Source of the DNA: an uncultured bacterium
GTDB lineage: Bacteria; Patescibacteriota; Gracilibacteria; Absconditabacterales; Absconditicoccaceae
Direction of reading: 5' to 3'
Length of the DNA: 42,817 bases
Assembly: GCA_937872535.1 (NCBI GenBank)
Contig: CALMTC010000016.1
Span: 105,081-147,897 of the forward strand
Positions 100-42,817 of this stretch are shown here, in pieces. The notes beneath the pieces are model-generated. The model worked only from the letters and a program-made list of their open reading frames with translations, searched no databases and had not been told where the DNA came from. Positions within the stretch are counted from its first letter, which is position 1. Every line of letters begins with the position of its first letter. Position numbers and translations under genes: made by a program.

Positions 100-867
100 A
101 TGTCTACAAAAAATGTCACTCAAAGTATACAATTGATACAATGATATTATCATTTTTTGTTGTTGGGGAAATTTCTTGAAGTAGTGATGCAGCATAATGA
201 TCTCAGCTCGTATGCTCAAAAAATTTCTATCTCTACTGGCTTACAGTCGAACTTTACGCTCAATGAGAAAAAAATAAAATCGCTTCTGGGATCAATTTAT
301 AAGCATGCAGATAAAAAAAATTTTTATGGATATTTGGTAGAAATCAGCGCTTTTAAGGGGATGTATAGTGTGATGAGAGAGCTGATAGAAGAGTCTCCAG
401 CGTTTACAGCTTTTTTGGAGAGAATTTTAAAAGATCAGTATTTTATGTTTGATCAGCTTATGAGATTATTGAGAAATATTTTGACTCATAGTTCTTCTTC
501 TCAGGTTATTATTCAAAAAGAATTTACTGATAAGCAAGTTGAGTTTTTGCGCTCCAAAAAATATAAGGTCATAGAGTTTGATTTCTTGTATTCTCGTTTT
601 GTGAGTCAGTGGAAATGAGCTGCGGACTATGGATTTTCTTTGCGTGTTGATCTTAATCGTCTCGATGATGGAGTGAGTTTGTTTGATGTAGTCAGTGTTC
701 ATCATCTTTATTTATTGGCAGAACTTTGTTATAATCTGGTAGAAATTTTTAAAAAAACTGTGATAGAAAAAGATGTGAAATCAAAAAATTCTGGACTGAA
801 ATCTAGGCAACTTGTTTCAAAAACCTTATGAAAAACCTCTTGAAATCAAAGAAGAAAAAGGAAATAA
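100..867 (+). CDS. Unknown protein with a HEPN-like RNxxxH motif
   Basis: Under code 25 this frame runs unbroken for 255 residues from ATG 100 to TAA; TGA-Gly codons lie at 142, 616, 829 and 841. I do not recognise the whole protein. A helical middle part (residues about 75-130) ends in LRNILTHSS, with R125-N126 and H130. This fits the R-x4-6-H motif of HEPN domains, which occur in RNases of toxin-antitoxin, Abi and CRISPR systems (family knowledge). A second long helix follows at about 205-230. The C-terminal 15 residues are strongly basic. The last 95 bases overlap the next gene in another frame, so the two are probably co-translated. The HEPN assignment is inference from one motif; a generic helical protein is the alternative. 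Confidence 0.7.
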
Positions 868-1579
868 TTTTTTTTCATATCAAAAAAGAAAAAACTCTGG
901 TTCTGACTGTGTATTGGTTGTCCCGAGTTTAATTGAAGGTACTATTGATGACTTACATATTTGAAAAACTATTTGTTTCGAAGAATATGAGAATGGCAAA
1001 CTTTTTTCGTGTGTGGGGCTGGAAACAATGGTCAGATTTGATTTTCAGTGAAAAAAAGTGATCATCATGGATAATCATAATCATGCACTTTTTTTTCGAA
1101 TTGAAGCACGAACTGATTGAATTTTTCAAAAATGAGTATCGGTTATTCATATTGATCAACATTCTGATATGACTGAACCTGAAATTTTTTTTGAATTGAA
1201 AGATGATGTTTTTCAATGAGAAAACCAGAAAAAAAACTTTTTGAATTATGTTTTTTGATATGTTAATAGTTTTTTGAATATAGGTAATTTTTTGGTGCCT
1301 GCCTTAAAGAGCTGACTTATCTCTCAAATTATTCAAGTGAGATCTCAATATGCACTTACTGAGCTTGAAAAGAAAATTGATCTTGGGTTTTTTCAGGATA
1401 CTTATATTTTAGATATTGATCTGGATTTCTGGGTAGAACAGATGGGGATTGATGAGGAGCAGTCTCTAAAGATAGTTCGTAAATTATTTGATAGAGCGGT
1501 GTTGGTTACTATAGCTACATCCCCCTATTTTATCGATCAAAGTAAAGCTATTGAGTTGGTGAAGAAAATTTTTTCATAA
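773..1579 (+). CDS. UPF0489 family protein
   Basis: The 268-residue frame opens at ATG 773 (MGNQKILDGN), inside the preceding gene, and closes with TAA at 1577. The family signature is visible: MDNHNHALFFRIEA followed by VIHIDQHSDM, and later DIDLDFW. Conserved His and Asp residues at such positions are typical of UPF0489 (C5orf22-like) proteins, which have an arginase/deacetylase-like core and no settled biochemical role (family knowledge). TGA glycines occur at several places, for example just before KKVIIMDNHNH. No other ATG lies upstream of the conserved core in this frame, so the overlapping start is the most likely one. A TTG at 812 is the alternative. Function unknown; metal-dependent hydrolase activity is only an inference from the fold. 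Confidence 0.8.
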
Positions 1580-1700: not shown

Positions 1701-4700
1701 ATGAAGTCAAAGAAATTGTTGTTATTTTGTATGACTTTTGTTGTTTTTGGTTTTTTTGCAGTGTATCAACTTTTTCAACAAAGAGAACAAGTATATGCGG
1801 CATTTACTGATTGTGCTAATGGGTCTGTTGATGTTGTTGCACAAGATTGTAATGGTCTGCAGGCATTTTATAATAATGTTAATGGTCTAGCTGCGCTTTG
1901 AGCAACTTGGTTTCAGAATGATATTATTTGTGGTTGGCAAGGAATAATTTGTGATACAAGTAGTCCTAAGAAGAAAGTAATTTGAATTTCTTTGTCTTGA
2001 TCGGCTGTTACTCTTTTGAGTGGTCAAGTTCCTTGGGGTTTTTATACTGGTTTGACGAATCTAAAAAGCTTGAGTATCTTATATAATTGAACTACTAATA
2101 CGAGAACAGTTATTTTTTCTAGTAGCTGATTAGCTCTTATTACTTGATTAAATAGTATTTTTCTTTGAGATTGTCCTTCTCCTCAATGTGTTTCTCAACC
2201 CGCAAAAAAAATAAATTTTTCTCCTGCATCTCAGTTTTCTCACTTTACTACTCTTACAGGTCTTAATTTCTTATATTTTAAATGAGTTCCTTTTACAGGA
2301 AATACTTCAACTTTTCAAACTTGGACGCATATGTCTTGATTGAATGAATTGCAGTTAATTAATATGCCTGGTTTTAGTGGTTCTTTAAATGATTTTTCTG
2401 GAGCAAATCTTTTCCCAAATTTGGATTTGTTGACTATTATTTGTGTTCCTTCTATGAATATTGGAGGTACTTTATCTGGTGTTACGAATTTACATAATTT
2501 AGTTGCACTTTCTCTTAACGATTGTCCGTCGATTAATGGTTGAATACCTGATGAAATAGCTCAACTTTCTAATCTGGAAAAAATAAATTTTATTAATCTT
2601 ACATGATTAAATTGATCAATTAGTCCTCAATTTACTACGCTTAGTTCGCTGAAAAATTTTTATGTTTCTACGACTAATCTACAAGGTAATACTACAGAGC
2701 TGTGCTGATTTACAGGATTGCAGACTTTTGAGTTTGGTAATGCTACTTTAACTTGATCTATTCCAGCTTGTCTTTGTGATAATACTAATATGACTACTTT
2801 TTTTCTTTCTCAGGCTTCTTCTACTCCGACTACTTGAAGAATAACTTGACCAATACCTTCTTGTATTGGTAGTGATTTGACTAAACTTACTTCTTTTATT
2901 CTGAATAATTTAAATCTTAGTGGTTTTCAGTTGCCATCTAATTTTGGTAATCTTACTGGATTGACTAATCTTACTATTTCTCAATGAAATCCTAATATTA
3001 ATGGCGTTCCTCAAAACTGGCATCTTGTTTCTACAAATACACTTTGAAGAGCTTATTGATTGACGGGTCCTATTCCTCCTACTTTGAGTGCTTTGACTAA
3101 GTTGCAATCGTTAATTTTGCCTATGAATTCTTTTGTCTGATCTATCCCTGATATTTTTTGACCTATGAAGGCTCTAAGAACTTTGAATCTGTCATGGAAT
3201 CTCGATATGTTAGCTTCATTGCCATCAAGTTTATCTAGTCATACTGGTTTGACTGCTTTAAATCTTGATGCTATCCCTCTTGCTTGATCTTTAAATGGTT
3301 TGTGATGAATGCCTGCTTTGACATATTTAAATATTGCAAGAAATGCTTTCTTTAGTCCATTACCTTTAAGTTATTTTAATGCTGTTTTTCCTTCGAGATC
3401 TGCTAATACTTTTTCTCTTTTTAATAACCTTTTTTATGGTAAAGTACCTTTGTCTGTAGTTACCCCTAGTGTTCTTTGAAATAGAATTCTTAATAACAAC
3501 TACTGTTTAGATTTTTCTGATATTCTTTTTTCACCCTGAGGTACAGATATTCTGGATACTTATCCAAATTGAGCTTGGAGAAATCAACAGTATTGTGCAG
3601 ATATATCTGTTACTGTGACGCAGAGTCCTGTGAATCCAAAACAACTTGATGTAGTGACTTATACTATCTCTTATACTAATACATGACCAAATCCTGTTTC
3701 TGGTTGGAATCTTGATTTTACAAAACCTACTTGGTTGACTGGTATTATTGCTTCTAGGTGATTTTCTCCTGTGTGATGAAATGTTCTTTTTTCTTGATCT
3801 GCTCTTTTGTGAATTTATGCATCGTGATGGTCTAGTTGAGGTATTTATGATTTTTCTACTGGTATTTATAGATATTTTGCTACCACTGGACAGACCTGAC
3901 TCATTGTTCTTACTGGTATTATGCAAGACAGCGGCTTCTCATTAACTCAAATCACTCGTATCAATCATATCACTGGTAGTACTCATTCTGGAAATGAAAT
4001 CGATTTTACTAATAATACTTTTTCTCTCCCAGTTAATACTGCTCAACCTGTTATGAACGCTCTTTCTCCAACTCAATGTACTTATGTTTTGACTAGCTCT
4101 AATCTTCGCTGGTATTATAATGGTCCTCTTGTTAGCTGATTCCTCTGGGAAGTCTCTTCTTCTTCCGGAGTACTTTTTGATGCTAATATTCTCACTTCTT
4201 GAACTGGTAATACTTTGACACCATGAACTACTTTGTATACCGGTACCCAACCTTTTTCTCCTTTTGTTTCTTCTTTAGTTTCTGGAAATACTTATTACTG
4301 GAAAGTAAGACCTTATGTAACTTGGCAAGGTAATACTTATTTTGGAGATGCTACTTCTGATTCTTGTTTCGGTGTAGGAGGTCCTCCATGGTTTGATATT
4401 GCTAATGACAATTGTGATCCTAAAGTCTCAAAAAATATCTCCGCTATCGCCACTTGATATACTTCAACTGGATTACTTGTCGATATCCCAGCTGGGGTTT
4501 GAAATACTTGATTCTTCTATAAAATTATTACTGATCCTCTTGATTGTTCATGATTTCCTACCGGATTCTTGAGTTATACTCCCGGTAGTAATCTTACTTT
4601 TTGATCATGAGATAATGGAAAATATGTTTGTTTTTATGCTCGTGATGAGATCGGTGACCAAGGTTATGCTTTGAGTAATCCTGTTTGTGGTATAGATTCT

Positions 4701-6305
4701 ACTTTACCATCTTGTAGTTTTGATATAGATTCTACACCAGGTGTTTATTACCAGACTGGGTGAGTAACTTATCTTAATACTTGATTCCTTGATTTTGCTT
4801 GGACTGGTAGCGAACTCTTAAGTGGAGTTGAATTTACTCTTTGAGCGTTTACTAATATTTTTAGTTCTGTATTGCCGGTAGCTGATGCTGGTATTTATCA
4901 AAACTTTTTCCTCGGTAGTAGTGAACAAGCTTATACTGTATTTATGCAATGTCAGGATCAAGTCTGATTTACTGGAACAGCTAGTTCTAACTTTTTCCTT
5001 GATATGACAGTCCCATCTATGCCAGTTGTCAATTGTTCAACAAGTTTCTTTGATTCAGATTTTACTATGACTTGGACACCATCCCTCGATGCATGAGTCT
5101 GATTTCAGTCTTATGATCGACAAATAAATCGTACAACTGATAATCTTCCTGTCTTATCAGATACTGTTTCTACTACTTTTCAAAATATTGCTATTAGTAG
5201 TCTTCCTGATTTTACAGGCTATTCATTTACTGTAAGAGGCTGTGACTTCTTGTGAAATTGTTCTGCTTATTCTCAGTGTGATTTTACTGTAATCTCCCCA
5301 GTTTGTGGTGATGGTGTTGTTTCTGCTCCAGAAACTTGTGATGACTCTAATACAAATAGTTGAGATGGTTGTAGTAGTACTTGTACTATAGAAAGTCCTT
5401 CTTGAGGTTGATGAGGTGGTGGGTGAACGACACTCACTCCAGATAATTGTAAATGATGAGATTTTTCTCCTAGTTACTATGACAAGAAGTGTGATGCTCC
5501 TCCAGTGGTGACATTATCATCAGCTCCTGTAACTGCGTTTCTTGATTTTTGTTCTTATAATGATGTTAATTATCTCAGTATTGATTTTTCTGATATTCTT
5601 AAAAATCGTCATAAAGAATCTATTAATCTTTTGCTTGATCTTTGTATTGTTAGATGAATTCCTCAAAAAAATATTTTTCTTCCTGCTAAATCTACGACAA
5701 GATGAGAATTTACTAAGGTTGTTGTAAAATTATTGGGAGCGTGATCATTTGAACCACAAGAAGCTAATGGTAATTCTTCTTATTACGATGCTTTTGGTCA
5801 TTGGTCTGCTACTTATTTTGAAGAGGCTCGTAAGCTATGACTTTTGACTGATTTAGAGAAAAGAACAAATAAATGAGTTACTATCCTACCAGAAGCTTTC
5901 ATAAAACAATCTGAAGCTAAGAAAATTCTTACCAAAGCTTTTCGTTTGATGGGTGCTTCTCAAAGTAATTTAACTGTACTTGATGCTGTTTTTCCTAAAA
6001 ATCTAGCTAATAACGAACTTTCGAGAGACTTTTTTGCTGGTATGATTGTTAAAGTTTTTGATTTGATGTCTGATGATAGTATCTTTTTCTCTTATATTGA
6101 TCAGGTTATGAACAAAAATACACAGGCAACTTTAAGAGCTTTGAATATTTATAAAACTATAGAGCAAAAAAAACTTTCTGTAAGTGAACTTGATGCTTTT
6201 ATTAAAAGTTTTTCTGAGAAATCTCTTTATCGATATAAACAAATGAATGTTAATAGGGCCCTTCTTCTTCAAAAGTTGAATGATTTAAAAAAGAAGAGTC
6301 CGTAG
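1701..6305 (+). CDS. Giant secreted leucine-rich repeat surface protein with SLH-like C-terminus
   Basis: A single code-25 frame of 1,534 residues from ATG 1701; an ATG at 1665 would add 12 hydrophobic residues. The N-terminus KSKKLLLFCMTFVVFGFF is a signal peptide or anchor. Residues about 70-600 are plant-type leucine-rich repeats (units such as LTGLTNLTISQGNPNINGVP and GSIPDIFGPM). Residues about 630-740 look like a DUF11 domain (VTYTISYTNTGPNPVSGWNL). Residues 750-1200 are beta-rich, FN3-like modules with paired cysteines. Residues 1202-1231 are a Myxo-type disulfide repeat (CGDGVV...CDD...SGDGCSSTC). An eight-glycine linker follows. Around 1330-1400 is an SLH-like unit (RGEFTKVVVKLLG...HWSATYFEEARKLG). 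A helical tail ends the protein. Dozens of TGA codons encode its glycines. It is likely a cell-surface adhesin or host-contact protein (inference). A rho-independent terminator follows directly. Confidence 0.88.
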
Positions 6306-32021: not shown

Positions 32022-32213
32022 ATGATCCTGATGGATTTTTTACTCGATCTCCTGAAGTTCCCTTTTGAAGCTAGTAATCAGAATAATAAATTTGTTAGAT
32101 TTTTGAATTTTATGTTTAGAGATTTCCCAGCTTATCTTTGGTCAAAGCCTTCAATTTGGCGTTTACTGATGTTGCCGATGTTGTTGATTTATAAGATCTT
32201 TAAAAAATTTTAA
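32022..32213 (+). CDS. Small hypothetical protein after ftsK
   Basis: 63 residues, 12 bases after the ftsK stop. It is basic and aromatic (FLDLLKFPFEASNQNNKFV, FRDFPAYLWSKPSIW), with a short hydrophobic C-terminus (LLMLPMLLIYKIFKKF) that could be amphipathic or a membrane segment. It contains no TGA codon and matches no family I know. Its position suggests co-transcription with ftsK and perhaps with the following pilin genes. Confidence 0.6.
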   Translation: MILMDFLLDLLKFPFEASNQNNKFVRFLNFMFRDFPAYLWSKPSIWRLLMLPMLLIYKIFKKF

Positions 32214-32233
32214 TTTCTGGTGAATTTTTCACT

Positions 32234-32725
32234 ATGCAACAATTCTTTTCTCAGAAAAAATATAAGGCTTTTACTCTTATCGAAATGCTGATTGTTATTT
32301 CGCTGGTTGGTATTGCTTTGACGATGGTGGGCAGATTTTCTTTTTGATCGATTACTCAGATTCAAGCTCAGATAGAGAAAGAGCAGTTTACAAATTTTTT
32401 TTATGAGACGGTAAGCACAGTTTTGAGTTCTAATAGTATCCAGTGAAAAAAATTTTCTCGTGTTACTCTCACTGCTACTGGAGATAAGGTCGTGGCTCAG
32501 TATTCATGAGAAAATTCTTTTACTCAAAACTTTAATTTTCAGCAGTATAGTCTGAGTGGCTGATTTTCTGTGGAACTTGTTCCTTATAAACTAGGCTGTG
32601 CAATGAGTGATGGGCAGAGCTGACAGTACTTGAATTTTTCGCTTCAGTATGCTGGACAGAGATTGCCGCATTGTTTTGTATTGGACACTTATAGTTGTAA
32701 AATTGCTCAGGTGAGATGTTTTTAG
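32234..32725 (+). CDS. Type IV pilin-like protein (pseudopilin 1)
   Basis: 163 residues. The class III signal KYKAFTLIEMLIVISLVGIA carries the prepilin F-T-L-I-E box, here with Ala instead of Gly just before the cleavage site. A globular C-terminal domain has three cysteines (LGCAM, PHCF, YSCK). It starts a run of four pilin-like genes. It is probably a minor pilin or competence pseudopilin (inference). Confidence 0.88.
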
Positions 32726-32820
32726 ATTTAGTGGTGTTTTCTTTTGACCTCCCTTTCCCTTTGACAGGCTCAGGGACCAGGAGGTAGCTCAGGGAACGAA
32801 ATTTATTTTATATTCACCAG

Positions 32821-33444
32821 ATGAAAAAACTTTGACTTACTTTGATAGAAATATTGATTGCGCTTTTTATTTTTGGAGTAGGAATTCTCAGTATTTTATC
32901 GATGATTACGAAAAATCTATGAGCAATTGATACGATTAGACTACAGAGTCAGAGTACTTTTTTTGCGAAGGAATGACTGGAGCTGATTGAAAATCTCAGA
33001 GATTCTATGGCTTTGAGAGGGAGGAAACGAAACTGTTTGCTAGAAAATACGGGGACTGATTTGACTGAAGAAACTCTTTGTTCTTTATTTGCTTTGGGGA
33101 CTGGGCAGACGAGCCAGATTGTTAGGATGTGACTTGATCAAAATGGTGTCTATGCTGTGATGCCGTATGAGGGTGGAACTGATTTTGATAGCTTGTTTTC
33201 TGCTGCGAGACTTTTTTATCATACAGGCTTGGTAGCGGATAGACAAACTTTTTGGTACGATTATGATCAGACTGGAAAACCTACTGAATTTGCTAGATAT
33301 TTACTATTTAGTGGATTTTTTTCTCAGCCAGATGCTGGTATTCTTTCTCCCGATATGATTATAAAAGTTCAATCGGTGGTGCTTTTTAGAAGAGGCTCTA
33401 AAACTGGGCAAACAATTCTTGAAACATTTTTATCTCAAAGATAG
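32821..33444 (+). CDS. Type IV pilin-like protein (pseudopilin 2, PilV-like)
   Basis: 207 residues. The N-terminus KKLGLTLIEILIALFIFGVG is a very short class III signal in which the cleavage-site Gly is encoded by TGA. PilV-like features follow (LGAIDTIRLQSQSTFFAKEG, then LELIENLRDSMA). The 95-base gap before it carries GC-rich direct repeats (GGCTCAGGGACC and AGCTCAGGGAACG, 32767-32799). It is four bases from the next pilin gene. Confidence 0.88.
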
Positions 33445-33448
33445 TTCG

Positions 33449-34036
33449 ATGAAGAAAACTTTGAAGTGATTTACTTTGATAGAAATCTCGATAGCGATAG
33501 CTTTGATGGGGATGCTGTTGGTCAGTGTTTTTAGAAGCTATAACACTATTGCGACTATTGCTGCTAGAATTGAGCAGGAAAAAATTTTGAATAATGAAAT
33601 TCTTTTCTTGAGTCAGGCTCTGGATACTGAAACTCAGTGACGCACTGTCGATTTTTCTCAGTATGCTCAACAAGACTTAGTAGCTAGTAACTGATATAGT
33701 GCGGATCTTTTCTTGACCTGAGGAGATGGTGCGATTCATATTTTTGCTCAAGGCTCTGGCTGTAATGCGTTGAGTTTTTGATCTGGAAATGGCTCTTGTG
33801 CTATTATGATGGATAAAAATGGTCAAATTACTGCTTTGACTAATCCTGATTTACTTTTTATCAAAGGACTTTCATTTAAAATTATTCCTTATCGTGAGAA
33901 TTTACCAGATATTGTTTCTTTGAAAGATTGGTATAAGCCAGGATTTTGGATTTTTTGAGATTTTTCTATTAAGAGATTTGGGACAAACTGGTCCAGCAAT
34001 GTATCGTTGTCAGTACAAGATTTTTATAGTTTGTAA
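33449..34036 (+). CDS. Type IV pilin-like protein (pseudopilin 3, PilW-like)
   Basis: 195 residues. KKTLKGFTLIEISIAIALMG is a class III signal; the cleavage Gly is TGA. The rest has few charges, one cysteine pair (SGCNAL, SGNGSC) and GFWIFGDFSIKRFG near the end. Its place after the PilV-like gene and before a PilX-like gene is the usual minor-pilin order V-W-X (family knowledge). Confidence 0.86.
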
Positions 34037-34044
34037 GTTTCATC

Positions 34045-34938
34045 ATGAATTTTTGAAAAATGAAAAAATCTGGTAATGTCAGTGTAACGGTTATTATGAT
34101 TATGATTGTCTCATCTTTTTTGGGACTTTTGACGATGCAGTATGTGCAAAATCTTCTCAAGGTGAATAGCTCTTACTATCAATATTATAGAGCTTATTAT
34201 CTAGCAAAATGAGCTGCTGATCTTGCTTTACTAAAAATTCAAACGCAGCCTATTTGATTTCAAGATAGTGTACTGAGTGGCTCTGAAACTGTGAAAAATA
34301 ATGTAGACTGTATATCTGGTCGTTGTTTTTTTGAGTATCAGATCTTTGCTACTCAGCCTATTTTGAGTGATGAGATTCTAGATTTTTCTCAGAGCTGTAC
34401 TACTGCAAAAAAAATTTCTCTTCAACCATGAGAGAGTGAAATTATTCCGCTTTTTGGACCGACAGGTTCGACAGGTCAGGAGCTGTCTCTCATGACACCT
34501 TATCAAATAGGTTTGTCTGTTACTTTGTCTCAGAGTAATGTTCAAGCTATTTTTTCTGGGGCTGAATCTCTGGGAATCTGACTTGTTTTAAATTCTAGTG
34601 GCTGACTTGCTGATTTTTATCAGCAGCACCCTTCTTTTGAGTCATTTCAGGTGGTGAGCTGATTTGATATCTCGAATCAAGCTACTAATCTTATTAAAAC
34701 TTATCTTTCTTATCTTAATCCTGATCTTCTTAATCAAGATAATTATCTGGTTATCAGTAATTTTTCATCGACTTCTGCGCTTGATTTTTGTCTTCAGACT
34801 GATGTTTCTCTCCCGACTAGAAATGTTGTGATTCAGAGCAAGTGATATTTTTTTGGGAAAGAGATAAATCTTACGGCGGTGAGAAAAATTACTATTCCAT
34901 CTTTTGTACTGAGTAGTTTTACTGAGCTTAGTCCTTAG
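34045..34938 (+). CDS. PilX-like type IV pilus assembly protein
   Basis: 297 residues from ATG 34045 (or 34060). GNVSVTVIMIMIVSSFLGLL is a single hydrophobic N-terminal helix without the FTLIE box; PilX-like proteins share this G-x helix (family knowledge). YYQYYRAYYLAKGAADLALL matches the conserved YYAAEAG-type region. The C-terminal portion is large, beta-rich and Ser/Asn-rich with paired cysteines (DCISGRC). TGA glycines are frequent. A strong terminator closes the pilin operon. Confidence 0.82.
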
Positions 34939-37294: not shown

Positions 37295-38074
37295 CTATGA
37301 AGTAATAACTTTTTTTCGATTTCTACCAAAGATCACTATTTCTTCCAGATTATTTGCTCTTTGTAAGGCAAGCATATCTAAAAAATTATTGGAATTGAGG
37401 TATAGTCTTTTGAGATTTTTTAATTCACTCAAAGTCGTGAGGTCGGTAATTTTGTTTCTCGTAAGGTCAAGAAATAGAATTTTTGCTAGATTTTTTAGTG
37501 GAGAGATATCATCAATTTCATTCCCACTAATATCTAATGTTTTAATCTTTTTGAGATTAACAAGTGGCGAGATGTCGTAGATATGATTCTCTGTAAGAGA
37601 GAGATGTCTAAGCTCTTTGAGACCACCTACCACCGACAGATCCGACAGATTGCTAGCATTGATACTGAGGTGTGTAAGATTTTTCAAAGAAGAAAGATCT
37701 GGTAGATTGTCAATAAAATAAAGTGAAAGATGTGTAAGATTTTTCAGAGAAGAAAGTCCAGAAATCTCTTTATACCAAAAAAAAGATAGATTGGTAAGTG
37801 TCTCTATCTCTCCTAATGGAGAAAGATTAAGAGATTCTTTTTTTTGGGGTGAGGCACTTATATGAAGAAGTCTTAGCTTTTTTAATGTTTCTAAGCGAGA
37901 AACATCTGAAATAAGAGCTTCTTCGATCTCTAAATGTGTGAGATTTTTAAGATTGCTTAGAAATATTGGAATTTCTCTTAATTCTATGTCTTCAATACTC
38001 AATTTGTGAATTGAATCATGGATTTTGGGGTTTTTTGCCAATTTTTCCAGCTGTGGTTTGGTTTTTATTTTCAT
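37295..38074 (-). CDS. Leucine-rich repeat protein, internalin-like repeats
   Basis: 259 residues from ATG 38074, without TGA codons or a signal peptide. At least nine LRRs of the 22-residue internalin type are visible, for example SLKNLTHLSLYFIDNLPDL, SLKNLTHLSINASNLSDLSV, ELRHLSLTENHIYDISPLVN and NLKKIKTLDISGNEIDDISP. The N-terminal 20 residues resemble a short cap. No anchoring domain is seen, so it is probably cytoplasmic and protein-binding. The complete absence of TGA in a gene of this size is unlike its neighbours and could mean recent arrival from a standard-code genome (inference); a coincidence of low glycine use is the alternative. Confidence 0.9.
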   Translation of the reverse strand: MKIKTKPQLEKLAKNPKIHDSIHKLSIEDIELREIPIFLSNLKNLTHLEIEEALISDVSRLETLKKLRLLHISASPQKKESLNLSPLGEIETLTNLSFFWYKEISGLSSLKNLTHLSLYFIDNLPDLSSLKNLTHLSINASNLSDLSVVGGLKELRHLSLTENHIYDISPLVNLKKIKTLDISGNEIDDISPLKNLAKILFLDLTRNKITDLTTLSELKNLKRLYLNSNNFLDMLALQRANNLEEIVIFGRNRKKVITS

Positions 38075-38158
38075 ATTTTTTGTTTCCTTGCTCTATTTTT
38101 ACTTATCTTTTTTATGAAAATCAAATGATTTTATAGAGTAATCAGAATTTAATTTTTT

Positions 38159-39359: not shown

Positions 39360-40583
39360 TTATTCGATATGATAGATGAAAAGATTTTCTTCATTGAGTA
39401 GATGACAGATATTTTTGAGATCAGAGAGAGTGACTTTTTGATAACTTTCAAGAATTTGATCGAGAGTTTCGATTTTATTTTCGATCAAATACTGAGAACC
39501 TATGAAGTCAGAGCATTCGTCTGAAGATTCGATTCCCATCTGAGTTTTTCCTTTCATATAACTGACGGCTTTGTCGAATTCTTCCTGCGAAATATCTCCG
39601 TCAGCTATTTTTTTGATTTCTTCTTTGATGGCTTGGAGACCAAATTCAAATCTGGCTTTTTCGATACCTGCTTTGATGAAAAAAAGTCCATCGAAACTAT
39701 CGGCAGAGTGTGAGGCAGAAATATAGTAACACAGTCACTTTTTTTCTCTGATTTGCTGAAAAAGTCTGGACGACATATTTCCTCCGAGAATAACTCCAAG
39801 GAGGCTAGCTGCGTATCTTTCTGGCTGGCTGAGAGAAAATCCACGAGCTGAGATAATGAGATGGTTTTGCTCTGTTTTTTTATTGAAAAAGTCGTGTTTT
39901 TTTGCTGGTGTATGGATAGAGTATGGAGTCACCAGAATTTTTTTCTTTTCAGGAAGTGGTCAGAATTCATTTGCGATTTGATCTTCGAGAGCTTTTTGAT
40001 CGATAATTTTCCCTGCGACGACGATGACGAGATTGTCCTTGGTGTAGAGGTTTTCCTTGTGAGCAAAAAGATCTTCGCGGGTAAATTTTTTGATGTTTTC
40101 TTCGGTTCCGATGATAGATCGACCGTAGCAATTATCTCCGTAAAAAAATTGTTTTCGCTTGTTATTTACGAGTCTTTGAGGTATATCTTCATACATTTTT
40201 AGTTCCTGAATGACGACACCTTTTTCTCTCTCCATTTCGTCTTGTGGAAACTGAGCATGAACGAGCATATCTCCCAAAACTTCGATGGCTTGGTGGATAT
40301 AATCTGGAGCACATTTCACGAAATAGCCTGCATACTCGTCACCTGTGTAGGCATTGAACGAGCCACCAAACTGGTCGACTGCCTGGGCGACGCTGTGAGG
40401 AGTCGGAAATTTTTTTCCACCTTTGAAAAACATATGCTCTAAAAAGTGGCTAATTCCATTATTTTCTCTGATTTCATAGTTGCTTCACGCTTTTACAAAA
40501 ATTTCTATCGTGACTGAATTTACCTCTGGCATCGGAGCAAAAACTACTTCTACTTCTGCTATTTTCTTGATTTCATGTTTCAT
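39360..40583 (-). CDS. M16 family zinc metallopeptidase
   Basis: 407 residues from ATG 40583. The inverted zinc motif HFLEH (H46, E49, H50) lies in ENNGISHFLEHMFFKGG, and the third ligand Glu is in EREKGVVIQELKMYED. R/Y motifs near the C-terminus (GGNMSSRLFQQIREKKGLCY) are typical of the catalytic M16B beta subunit. It degrades oligopeptides or processes proteins (family knowledge). It is followed by the MFS gene. Upstream is the recurrent CCAGAATAAAAATTTTTAG element, on the same strand as the gene. Confidence 0.95.
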
Positions 40584-40827
40584 CTTTCTTTGCTGAATTT
40601 TCTAAAAATTTTTATTCTGGAAAACCTCCCCTGCGGCCCCTTTCTGTAAGGAGGGAATAGTGTGGGAAAGTATTTTTTCTCTTTTTTATAGTAGCGAAAT
40701 GGTCGTGAGATGGAAGAGATTTTTGGAGGATATGGTTAGTTTTTTTCGTAAAAAATAATTGTAATTGAGGAAGTATTATTTAGAGTTTTTGAGTGGGGAG
40801 AAATTTATTTTTTTGAAGGTAATAATT
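40584..40827. other. Divergent intergenic region with GC-rich and AT-rich elements
   Basis: It separates the minus-strand M16 gene from the plus-strand cas12a fragment. It holds the AT element (40601-40619), a CCTCCC..GGAGGG inverted pair (40625-40656) and no convincing gene. Confidence 0.5.
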
Positions 40828-41478
40828 ATGGAGAAATCTATTTTTGATGGTATGACAAATTTGTATAGTTTAAGTAAAACCTTGAGATTTGAGCTGAAAC
40901 CTGTGGGGAAGACTTTGGAAAATATGAAAACGAATTTAGCCTATGATGAATCATTACATACATTTCTTAACGATCAAAATATCGAAGATGCTTATCAAGT
41001 TCTGAAACCAATATTGGACAAATTACATGAAGAGTTTATCACTATAAGTCTCGAAAGTGATAAAGCAAAAAATATTGATTTTTCTGGTTACTTGGATTTG
41101 AAACTTCAAAAAGAAAAAGTTGATAGCGAAATATGAGTAGTAAACAAGAGAAACAGTAGCAAAAAAACATGAGAAATAGAAACAGAAGAAAAAAAGTTAA
41201 GATGAGAGATTGTAAAATTATGGAAGATAGGTGGTGATGCATTCTTGAAAAAATGAGTTATAGTTGAAGATGCTTCTGAAGATTGAGAAAAAAATCCAGG
41301 TAATAAAGAAAAAAAGTGATGAGTTAAAGTTTTGCTTGAAAAATGAATTCTTAATGCAATCAAGACAGAGTTAGAAAATAATGAGATGATTTTCGATGAT
41401 TTCTACTATTGTAGATTGCTAGCTAGAACAGGTACAGATACTATCGATTATAACATCCAAAAAATTTGAGAAAAATAA
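40828..41478 (+). CDS. cas12a: Truncated Cas12a (Cpf1) N-terminal fragment
   Basis: 216 residues, where Cas12a is normally about 1,200-1,300. The start MEKSIFDGMTNLYSLSKTLR continues FELKPVGKTLENMKTNL, the Cas12a WED-I signature; AYQVLKPILDKLHEEFI and NIDFSGYLDLKLQ fit the first REC1 helices (family knowledge). Residues 115-175 (EKKLRGEIVKLWKIGGDAFL, VLLEKGILNAIK) still resemble REC1. After about residue 185 the resemblance stops, and a Cas12a-type direct repeat lies in frame. The frame closes at TAA 41476. A good ribosome site GAAGG sits 8 bases before the ATG, so it may be translated. RuvC, Nuc, PI and REC2 regions are absent, so no cleavage can be expected. Eight or more TGA glycines lie in the frame. 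No cas1, cas2 or cas4 is present nearby. Confidence 0.85.
41398..41416 (+). CRISPR. Single Cas12a-type direct-repeat core inside the cas12a fragment
   Basis: GATTTCTACTATTGTAGAT differs by one base from the conserved Cas12a repeat end AATTTCTACTATTGTAGAT. TCTAC (41402-41406), TATT loop and GTAGA (41411-41415) form exactly the crRNA pseudoknot hairpin. It is in the sense orientation of the gene. No second copy was found on either strand, so this is a solitary unit and not an array. The bases 3' of it (from 41417) would be the spacer position. Confidence 0.75.
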
Positions 41479-41608
41479 TATCAGAATGCGAAGAAAAAAG
41501 TTCTTTTATGATGAGCCATAGTTTAGATTTCAAAGAAAGAAAACCAAATGGATTATGAATGTTTTCTTTTAGAATCACTAGACGATTTGATGACCATGAT
41601 GATCAATG

Positions 41609-41627
41609 AGCAGAATAAAAATTTTTA
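41609..41627 (+). promoter_or_regulatory. Recurrent AT-rich element CAGAATAAAAATTTTTATC
   Basis: It lies 12 bases before the deacetylase start. Near-identical elements precede uvrD (6439), rnhA (10777), and, on the minus strand, the M16 gene (40619). The reverse version precedes the genes starting at 12693 and 21924. It may be a promoter or operator. The 161-base gap 41479-41639 is otherwise empty of genes. Confidence 0.4.
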
Positions 41628-41639
41628 TCTTTTTCAGAA

Positions 41640-42365
41640 ATGATGAAAAAAATATTTTTTAGTATAGTTGGTATTATTGTTATTTGTTTTGGATTTTTTT
41701 ATCTTTCAAAGTCGAGGAGTTTTCAGTTTTTTGGCGGTATGGTAAATAGTATAAAGACGGATAAGAATATGGTGGCTTTGACTTTTGATGACGGGCCGAC
41801 GAGTGGGAATAGTGAGAGAGTCTTGGAGATTTTGGCGAGACATGCTGTGAAGGCTAGTTTTTTTGTGATAGGGCAGGAGATTGAAAAGTGTCCAGAATGT
41901 CTGAAGAGTATCATAGAGGCTGGGCACCAAGTGGGTAATCACTCGTATTCTCATCAGAGAATGGTTTTTAAAACGCCGAGTTTTATTCAGGAGGAGATTA
42001 AAAAAACTGATGAACTTATAAGAAATGCTAGCTATAGCGGGGAAATTTTATTTAGGACGCCTTATGGAAAGAGACTTTTTTTGGCAACTTATTATTTGTG
42101 GAAGTATCGTAAACCTAATGTTTTCTTTGATGTAGAGCCAGAAACTTATGTGGCGGGGCACAAAAATATTGTCGATTATGTTCTTCAAAATACTCATTCT
42201 GGAAGTATTATTTTGCTTCATCCTATGTATGGAACTGGTAATCAATCATTGGCGGGGCTGGATGAAATTATTAGCAGTCTAAAAGCTAGATGATTTCAAT
42301 TTGTGACGGTTGACGAGCTTATGAAGGCGACTGGAGTGAGGCCAAATTTTTGGTTTGTCAGATAG
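41640..42365 (+). CDS. Membrane-anchored polysaccharide deacetylase (NodB homology, CE4)
   Basis: 241 residues from ATG 41640 or 41643. The N-terminal helix IFFSIVGIIVICFGFFYL is an anchor or signal. The NodB domain starts VALTFDDGPTSG (D50, D51). It continues SFFVIGQEI and GHQVGNHSYSHQRM, whose two histidines with D51 bind the metal. RTPYGKR and IILLHPMYG are the remaining catalytic motifs. It removes N-acetyl groups from peptidoglycan or another glycan outside the cell (family knowledge). One TGA-Gly occurs near the C-terminus (KARGFQF). It shares the strand of the cas12a fragment but has its own AT element upstream. Its 3' end overlaps the convergent transposase frame. Confidence 0.93.
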
Positions 42366-42817
42366 TTTTTTGTGCTGTTGCAGCGAAAAGTTTACACTTA
42401 GTGGATAAGATAATGAAGAGGTAAGTTTTTGCAAGGGAGTACAAGACATATTGAGTCAGTAGTGTTTTCTCTTGTTGTTATAATACGACAACCGAAGGTT
42501 GTTGTGGTAAGATAGTTGGTCGATAGACCAATCTATTTTCCGATACTTTACACACCTTTCTTTCCATGTTTTATGATACCTTTCGATTTTCCCATTATGT
42601 TCTGGACAATACGGTGCATTTCTGTACCATGTTATTCAGAGATCTTCAATCGCAAGTTGGAATCTCGAGCTAAACTCTCTTCCTTGGTCGGTTCTAATTG
42701 CTTGGATCACAAAGGGAGAGTTTTTTTGTAAATGGAGAAGGAAGTTTGCACTCTCATAATCCCCATGTCACTCATACACTTTTGAGTAAACCCACCTCGA
42801 ACAATCATCTATTGCTG
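42279..42817 (-). CDS. DDE transposase (rve/IS481- or IS3-like), partial
   Basis: The frame enters from the right window edge and reads AIDDCSRWVYSKVYEGHGDY, then IRTDQGREFSSRFQ and NAPYCPEHNGKIERYHKTWK. These give the D-D-34-E catalytic set of the retroviral integrase superfamily. The C-terminal part NNKRKHYGLNMSCTPLQKLT is the usual end of such transposases. After it the frame runs another 45 codons to a TAG inside the deacetylase gene, so the element's natural end is probably near 42370-42420. Three TGA glycines in frame show that it is adapted to code 25. The 5' part lies outside the window. Confidence 0.85.
42370..42817 (-). mobile_element. Insertion sequence, right part cut by the window edge
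   Basis: The element carries the DDE transposase on the minus strand. Its left end is likely near 42370-42390, where TGTGCTGTTGCAGCGAAAAG begins; GTGCTGTTGCA also occurs at 36131. Neither the opposite terminal repeat nor a target duplication can be seen here. Confidence 0.6.

What the first reader, a model, noticed from the sequence alone, without database searches (positions are those of the whole stretch)
1701..6305. 1,534-residue mosaic surface protein
About 500 residues of plant-type LRR are fused to DUF11-like, FN3-like, Myxo disulfide and SLH-like parts. I know no named protein with this exact order. In an episymbiotic lineage this is a candidate for host recognition.
Basis: partly seen in the sequence, partly recalled or inferred. 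Interest (0 to 1): 0.58.

Follow-up and report, generated by a model that had tools for sequence, protein, structure and literature searches.

The report
Wall-anchored surface protein with leucine-rich front
This is a real, very large exported protein of a tiny recoded bacterium, most likely held to the cell wall by its tail so that a leucine-rich binding front is displayed outside; it is one of a set of such proteins with exchangeable fronts, and a short, apparently lineage-restricted motif beside the tail is the least explained part.

Summary
The ORF is real: 1701-6305, + strand, 1,534 codons open only when TGA is read as glycine (64 TGA of 143 glycine codons, like most neighbours). The LRR part is real homology: 76 bits against a family LRR protein, best of 500 shuffles 7. 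The C-terminus is a diverged S-layer homology (SLH) triplet: weak alone, but a profile of nine modules from this genome matches solved SLH domains at 3e-11. The myxo-disulfide repeat is secure; DUF11 and FN3 are weak. The N-terminus looks like a signal peptide. Nine other ORFs in this genome, mostly large, share the C-terminal module with other fronts (beta-helix, DUF11, beta-propeller); none shows an LRR. LRR+SLH-type proteins recur in at least five other genomes of the 49 held for the family, in other orders. So: a wall-anchored modular surface protein, a new variant of a known kind. Binding to a host cell is plausible and untested; a plant origin is neither needed nor tested. Unexpected: after a glycine run sits D-x-C-x-x-G-D-x-S-x-S-Y-Y-D-x-x-C, found in 53 of 353 class genomes, all in three families whose sampled motif genes contain TGA in 66 of 68 cases, 0 of 229 genomes in other families, and 0 of 87 outside the class.

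The parts
1701..6305 (+). Whole gene, 1,534 codons, genetic code 25
   Evidence: TGA is 64 of 143 Gly codons
1701..1802 (+). Putative signal peptide (residues 1-34; hydrophobic core, cleavage guess VYA|AF)
   Evidence: sequence; hydropathy; no predictor run
1842..1955 (+). LRR N-cap of LRRNT_2 type (residues 48-85, CxWxGIxC)
1956..3605 (+). Plant-specific-class LRR solenoid and C-terminal cap (residues about 86-635; borders approximate)
   Evidence: strand spacing 24-28 over much of a low-confidence model
3600..3749 (+). DUF11-like match (residues 634-683; the domain probably runs further)
   Evidence: both under cut-off
5010..5267 (+). FN3-like domain (residues 1104-1189), weak
   Evidence: E 7e-4
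5301..5396 (+). Myxo disulfide repeat / DUF4215 (residues 1201-1232)
5403..5426 (+). Glycine run
5442..5492 (+). D-x-C-x-x-G-D-x-S-x-S-Y-Y-D-x-x-C motif (residues 1248-1264)
5538..6065 (+). Diverged SLH triplet (residues about 1280-1455)
6075..6302 (+). Shared C-terminal tail of about 75 residues, separable from SLH

Best explanation
The gene makes a Sec-exported protein that is held non-covalently on the cell wall by a C-terminal SLH triplet, probably through a pyruvylated secondary wall polymer, and that displays a long LRR solenoid on a stalk of DUF11/FN3-like and cysteine-rich domains. The LRR face binds a protein or glycan outside the cell. In this lineage the C-terminal anchor is a common chassis and the front is the exchangeable part; here the front is an LRR. 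Shown by sequence: LRR homology, myxo-disulfide repeat, SLH homology via paralogues, the shared C-terminal module with different fronts, one candidate pyruvyltransferase gene. Inferred: export, wall binding, ligand binding, and that the ligand sits on a host cell.
For: LRR homology far above 500 shuffles and to solved LRR ectodomains. The profile of nine C-terminal modules matches solved SLH domains: Sap 3e-11, Paenibacillus S-layer SLH 9.4e-11, SbsB 1.9e-8. Twelve places with this module in the genome, two of them short or weak; nine paralogues were read, and in the six of them scanned with Pfam the fronts differ: Beta_helix in three, DUF11 in three (one shared), beta-propeller repeat in one. 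One PS_pyruv_trans gene, 32.8 bits, over cut-off. LRR+SLH-type proteins in at least five other family genomes. Published relatives carry 8-10 SLH proteins and large adhesion-domain proteins (passages read).
Against: SLH in this protein alone is under Pfam's cut-off, and only the first repeat keeps a TRxE-like signature (TRGE; the TRAE motif is recalled), so wall binding may be weak or altered. PS_pyruv_trans also occurs in genomes for other purposes (9 of 14 controls). Both structure predictions were poor (mean pLDDT 42.9 and 40.3) and give no independent support. No expression, export or binding data. The LRR may be a spacer rather than a binder.
Confidence: 0.66

Rival explanations
1. It is a host-recognition adhesin of an episymbiont: the LRR face binds a specific molecule on the host bacterium (a narrower form of the best explanation).
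For: Lineage inferred from code 25 and relatives; characterised relatives with this code are epibionts or predators with giant adhesion-domain proteins (passages). LRR proteins were proposed for adherence in oral Saccharibacteria (passages). Type IV prepilin-like ORFs lie in the same window (by eye).
Against: No host is known for this genome and no ligand is shown. LRR fronts are patchy: 8 of 353 class genomes by this query, so they are not a general requirement of the lifestyle.
Confidence: 0.35
2. It is a structural surface-layer component or stalk, the LRR serving as a spacer.
For: SLH anchor, long repetitive make-up, about ten proteins of this build in one genome.
Against: An N-cap and LRR block seen on only this one of the ten ORFs read suggests a special job; S-layer lattice proteins are usually one or two per cell (recalled).
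Confidence: 0.2
3. It collects or binds environmental polymers (polysaccharide, extracellular DNA, protein debris) rather than cells.
For: Several sibling fronts are right-handed beta-helices, a fold common in polysaccharide-active proteins (recalled).
Against: No enzyme domain in this protein.
Confidence: 0.2
4. Assembly or annotation artefact: two genes joined, or an ORF open only because code 25 is assumed.
For: The genome is a draft in 23 contigs.
Against: 1,534 codons without TAA/TAG; most neighbouring genes use TGA for Gly in like proportion; the C-terminal part has paralogues with the same module, the closest 46% identical over 339 residues.
Confidence: 0.02

Closest known systems
SLH-domain surface proteins (B. 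anthracis Sap, Paenibacillus S-layer SLH, SbsB), incl. those counted in Absconditicoccus and Strigamonas
   Same: C-terminal SLH triplet recognised by profile; similar number per genome as published for relatives
   Different: Repeats diverged below the Pfam cut-off; an extra C-terminal tail and a Cys/YYD motif in front; LRR front
Secreted bacterial LRR proteins of the plant-specific class (here G009, 414 aa; G034, 972 aa)
   Same: Signal-like start, LRRNT-type N-cap by eye or profile, LxGxIP-type repeats; G034 also has the myxo repeat and the same C-terminal tail
   Different: No SLH match in G009 or G034; the repeats here are far more degenerate
LRR+SLH-type proteins of the same family (L106, L107, L108, L120, L122, L148)
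   Same: LRR, glycine run, Cys/YYD motif or a near variant, SLH-type C-terminus
   Different: Different order and partners (two LRR blocks, beta-helix before LRR, PKD); another SLH subfamily (A3); LRR class of L122 and L148 not settled
Plant LRR receptor kinases (GSO1, FLS2, BRI1 ectodomains)
   Same: Repeat class and N-cap
   Different: No transmembrane-kinase part; domain order and anchor are bacterial
Giant surface proteins of Vampirococcus lugosii
   Same: Large proteins with DUF11 and fibronectin domains in a related lineage (passages)
   Different: No LRR or SLH mentioned in the text searched

Membership tests
SLH-anchored wall protein | SLH domain, usually three in tandem | tested here: met
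   Profile of nine modules vs solved SLH, 3e-11; alone under Pfam cut-off
SLH-anchored wall protein | Export signal at the N-terminus | tested here: inconclusive
   Hydrophobic N-terminus and AxA-like site by eye and hydropathy; no predictor
SLH-anchored wall protein | Pyruvyltransferase (CsaB type) in the genome | tested here: inconclusive
   One PS_pyruv_trans gene, over cut-off; that it is CsaB was not shown
SLH-anchored wall protein | Binding to the secondary wall polymer | not testable with these tools
   Needs a pull-down
Plant-specific-class LRR protein | Tandem 24-residue repeats LxxLxLxxNxLxGxIPxx | tested here: met
   Homology above shuffles, PDB 1.1e-39; degenerate, strict repeat model failed
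Plant-specific-class LRR protein | LRRNT-type cysteine cap | tested here: met
   21.0 bits vs cut-off 20.7; 13.8 bits
DUF11 protein | DUF11 over cut-off | tested here: not met
   21.5 vs 24.6 bits
FN3 protein | FN3 match | tested here: inconclusive
   No Pfam match; chitinase A1 FN3 7e-4
Host-recognition adhesin | Shown binding to a host cell | not testable with these tools
   Needs an experiment

The most novel reading that the evidence does not exclude
The glycine run plus D-x-C-x-x-G-D-x-S-x-S-Y-Y-D-x-x-C motif is a lineage-specific attachment, cross-linking or maturation signal of the surface proteins of the recoded (TGA = Gly) Patescibacteria: a common chassis that lets them swap binding fronts (LRR, beta-helix, propeller) on a diverged SLH anchor, so that the set of fronts beside this motif is the cell's repertoire for recognising other cells.
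Probability: 0.3. Interest if true: 0.62.

Novelty: new variant of a known kind. Interest (0 to 1): 0.42.

Why it matters
Which surface proteins let ultra-small episymbionts choose a host is open. The shared C-terminal module and its motif give a simple way to list much of the surface repertoire of a recoded genome, including proteins whose SLH is too diverged for Pfam, and LRR fronts are concrete candidates for binding tests.

Tried and rejected
Plant-to-bacterium transfer: not needed by the data; the N-cap in the class is concentrated in this family, but no tree was made. Recent foreign gene: rejected, TGA share like most neighbours. SLH read from Pfam alone: inconclusive, replaced by the paralogue profile. 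Strict 24-residue LRR model: failed on this protein (E 21 on the real protein, best shuffle E 0.01), reported as against. AlphaFold on the LRR part and the C-terminal part: poor, not used for fold search. Named relatives through genome contigs: none in two scans. The motif in IMG/VR: none. The LRRNT match in G007 was dropped as chance: it lies antisense inside a ClpB-like ORF and holds stops. The one match outside the family (G574) is short and under cut-off. Papers: searches for LRR with Gracilibacteria and for SLH domain with Candidate Phyla Radiation gave two papers and one paper; 'SYYD' with Patescibacteria gave none; 'plant-specific LRR' with bacteria and horizontal gene transfer gave none. 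This covers only the held open-licence library.

Full report
What is there. The ORF at 1701-6305 (+) is real. It reads 1,534 residues under code 25 with 64 in-frame TGA and no other stop. TGA makes up 64 of its 143 glycine codons, against 18 of 47, 12 of 47, 17 of 49, 22 of 59 and 14 of 25 in five window genes of the same script; a sixth (M16-type peptidase) uses 3 of 27 and the Cas12a fragment 9 of 16 (the gene labels there are mine, read from the sequence). An in-frame ATG at 1665 would add 12 residues; the start at 1701 gives a basic start and hydrophobic core. The window is the end of a 147,897-base contig of a 1.25 Mb draft genome in 23 contigs.

LRR part. Pfam LRR_14 matches at 4.9e-8 but under its gathering score; phmmer against the PDB gives plant receptor ectodomains, GSO1 first at 1.1e-39. 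Because such proteins are rich in L, N, S and G, I made a shuffle control: phmmer scores of the real LRR part are 76.4, 72.3, 66.2, 54.0, 52.3 and 40.0 bits against six LRR proteins of related genomes; the best of 500 shuffles was 9.4 bits over these, and the reversed sequence was negative. Against L106, L108 and L110 of the same family the scores are only 8.3, 9.8 and 19.7 bits, so those fronts are not close relatives of this one. LxxLxL-like motifs: 12, shuffle mean 3.5, maximum 9 of 2,000. A strict 24-residue repeat model failed on this protein, so the repeats are degenerate. The AlphaFold model without alignment is poor (mean pLDDT 42.9) though its strands are spaced 24-28 residues over much of the block.

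C-terminal module. SLH is under cut-off in the protein. But residues about 1190-1531 recur in the genome, the closest copy at 46% identity over 339 residues. Nine C-terminal modules including this one were aligned, and their profile matches solved SLH domains: Sap 3e-11, Paenibacillus S-layer SLH 9.4e-11, SbsB 1.9e-8. The profile finds 13 rows in the genome, which I read as 12 places, two of them short or weak. Nine paralogous ORFs were read (L018 is cut at its front by a stop). Six scanned with Pfam give Beta_helix in three, DUF11 in three (one of them also Beta_helix), a beta-propeller repeat in one, SLH over cut-off in three. L018, L019 and L024 were not scanned with Pfam; the first two were scanned with NCBIfam. 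None of the six Pfam-scanned paralogues shows an LRR, and none of the nine is hit by blastp with the N-terminal 640 residues. The genome has one PS_pyruv_trans gene, as a pyruvylated wall polymer would need.

A separable tail. The last 75 residues align with tails of other proteins; the profile finds them in 10 of 49 genomes of the family at E 0.01, with seven rows in this genome. The three weakest genomes are at 6.8e-4, 0.0011 and 0.009. Seven of the ten rows that made the profile are from this genome, and the profile's own members match by construction. In G034 the tail ends an LRR+myxo-disulfide protein with no SLH match.

How common is the LRR front. With this LRR part as query: 3 of 379 genomes of the phylum sample, this one included, and 8 of 353 of the class, this one included. 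LRRNT_2 gives 9 of 353; after dropping the antisense G007 match, seven are in this family of 49 and one, weak, outside. Reading these and the motif loci, LRR proteins with a glycine/Cys/YYD linker and an SLH-type C-terminus are found in G429 (two), G031, G012, G431 and G438, thus at least six of 49 family genomes with this one. The SLH call in these rests on weak Pfam matches (L120 0.0015, L122 0.0046, L106 0.015; none listed for L107, L108, L148) and on profiles built here; the A3 profile matches solved SLH only at 0.031. Their motif is exact in four and a near variant in L106 and L107. Order and partners differ, so the exact order here stays unique in what was searched.

The motif. D-x-C-x-x-G-D-x-S-x-S-Y-Y-D-x-x-C, written as a DNA pattern that accepts TGA as glycine, occurs in 53 of 353 class genomes, all in three families: by my count of the listing 22 of 49, 8 of 27 and 23 of 48; 0 of 229 in all other families; the backward pattern gives 0 everywhere. 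In a phylum sample of 94 genomes only this genome has it; 87 of them lie outside the class. IMG/VR has none. I fetched 60 stretches around matches and with earlier loci read 68 distinct motif ORFs (of 111 rows by my count: 52 of 55, 10 of 15, 6 of 41 by family). In all 68 the motif lies 64-390 residues from the C-terminus (median 193), with four or more glycines in the 20 residues before it in 64 of 68; 66 of 68 ORFs contain TGA codons. Pfam SLH is seen at E 0.01 in 28 of 68 C-terminal parts, SH3_3 in 4, a sortase domain in 1; with SLH profiles freed of the motif columns, 42 of 68 match, no shuffled control does, and 26 of 68 do not match. These profiles hold some of the 68 sequences. Of 53 ORFs that do not begin at the edge of a stretch, 47 have a hydrophobic stretch in the first 90 residues, against 9 of 24 window ORFs over 250 residues (a crude test, and the 24 include ORFs that are not genes). 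NCBIfam gives no model that most of the 68 share. Its role is unknown; a disulfide-closed linker is the plainest reading, a lineage-specific attachment signal the boldest.

Literature. Passages read: relatives in Absconditicoccaceae carry 8-10 SLH proteins and large proteins with fibronectin and other adhesion domains, use code 25, and cas12a is mentioned (PMC13059738); Vampirococcus has giant proteins with DUF11 and fibronectin domains (PMC8080830); Gracilibacteria metaproteome passages name pili and VCBS proteins (PMC11452946); LRR proteins are proposed for adherence in oral Saccharibacteria (PMC7739484); LRR classes, among them plant-specific (PMC5976695). Abstract and outline read: Leptospira LRR proteins bind host glycosaminoglycans and integrins (PMC11629876). 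Thus SLH-anchored large adhesin-like proteins in this lineage are known; the LRR front on such an anchor and the motif I did not find in print in searches (open-licence library only; hits of 82 were read only as a listing apart from PMC9530719 and PMC13059738, passages).

Verdict. A real, probably exported and wall-anchored modular surface protein, one of about ten on a common anchor, with an LRR front. The mechanism of display is fairly well supported by homology; the binding partner is a guess.

Noticed in passing
window 40765-41478 (+): ORF of 237 aa matching only the N-terminus of Cas12a (TIGR04330 5e-16, profile 4-106 of 1288), likely a remnant; no CRISPR-like repeat array in 40500-42817.
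   Followed up: partly
window 42279-42815 (-): Transposase/integrase-core-like ORF at the very end of the contig (by eye only).
   Followed up: no
window 37295-38092 (-) and G000:C12, C4, C2: Further LRR ORFs of cytoplasmic look with no in-frame TGA under the matches; 0 of 6 and 0 of 20 glycine codons in two of them, against 64 of 143 in the main gene, perhaps recently gained.
   Followed up: partly
window 32204-34938 (+): Three prepilin-like ORFs (FTLIE or LTLIE) and a fourth ORF in a row, as for a type IV pilus cluster (by eye).
   Followed up: no
window 773-1579 (+): Gene just upstream matches UPF0489 (7.6e-12).
   Followed up: no
L048:1-2709 (G360) and L052:845-6685 (G676): Other Patescibacteria carry the LRR class fused to a subtilase-like part (by eye) or as a 1,946-aa protein with several LRR blocks.
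   Followed up: no
L020:5889-8972 (-): One paralogue ends with a peptidoglycan-binding domain (PG_binding_1 2.5e-5) after the SLH-type module.
   Followed up: no
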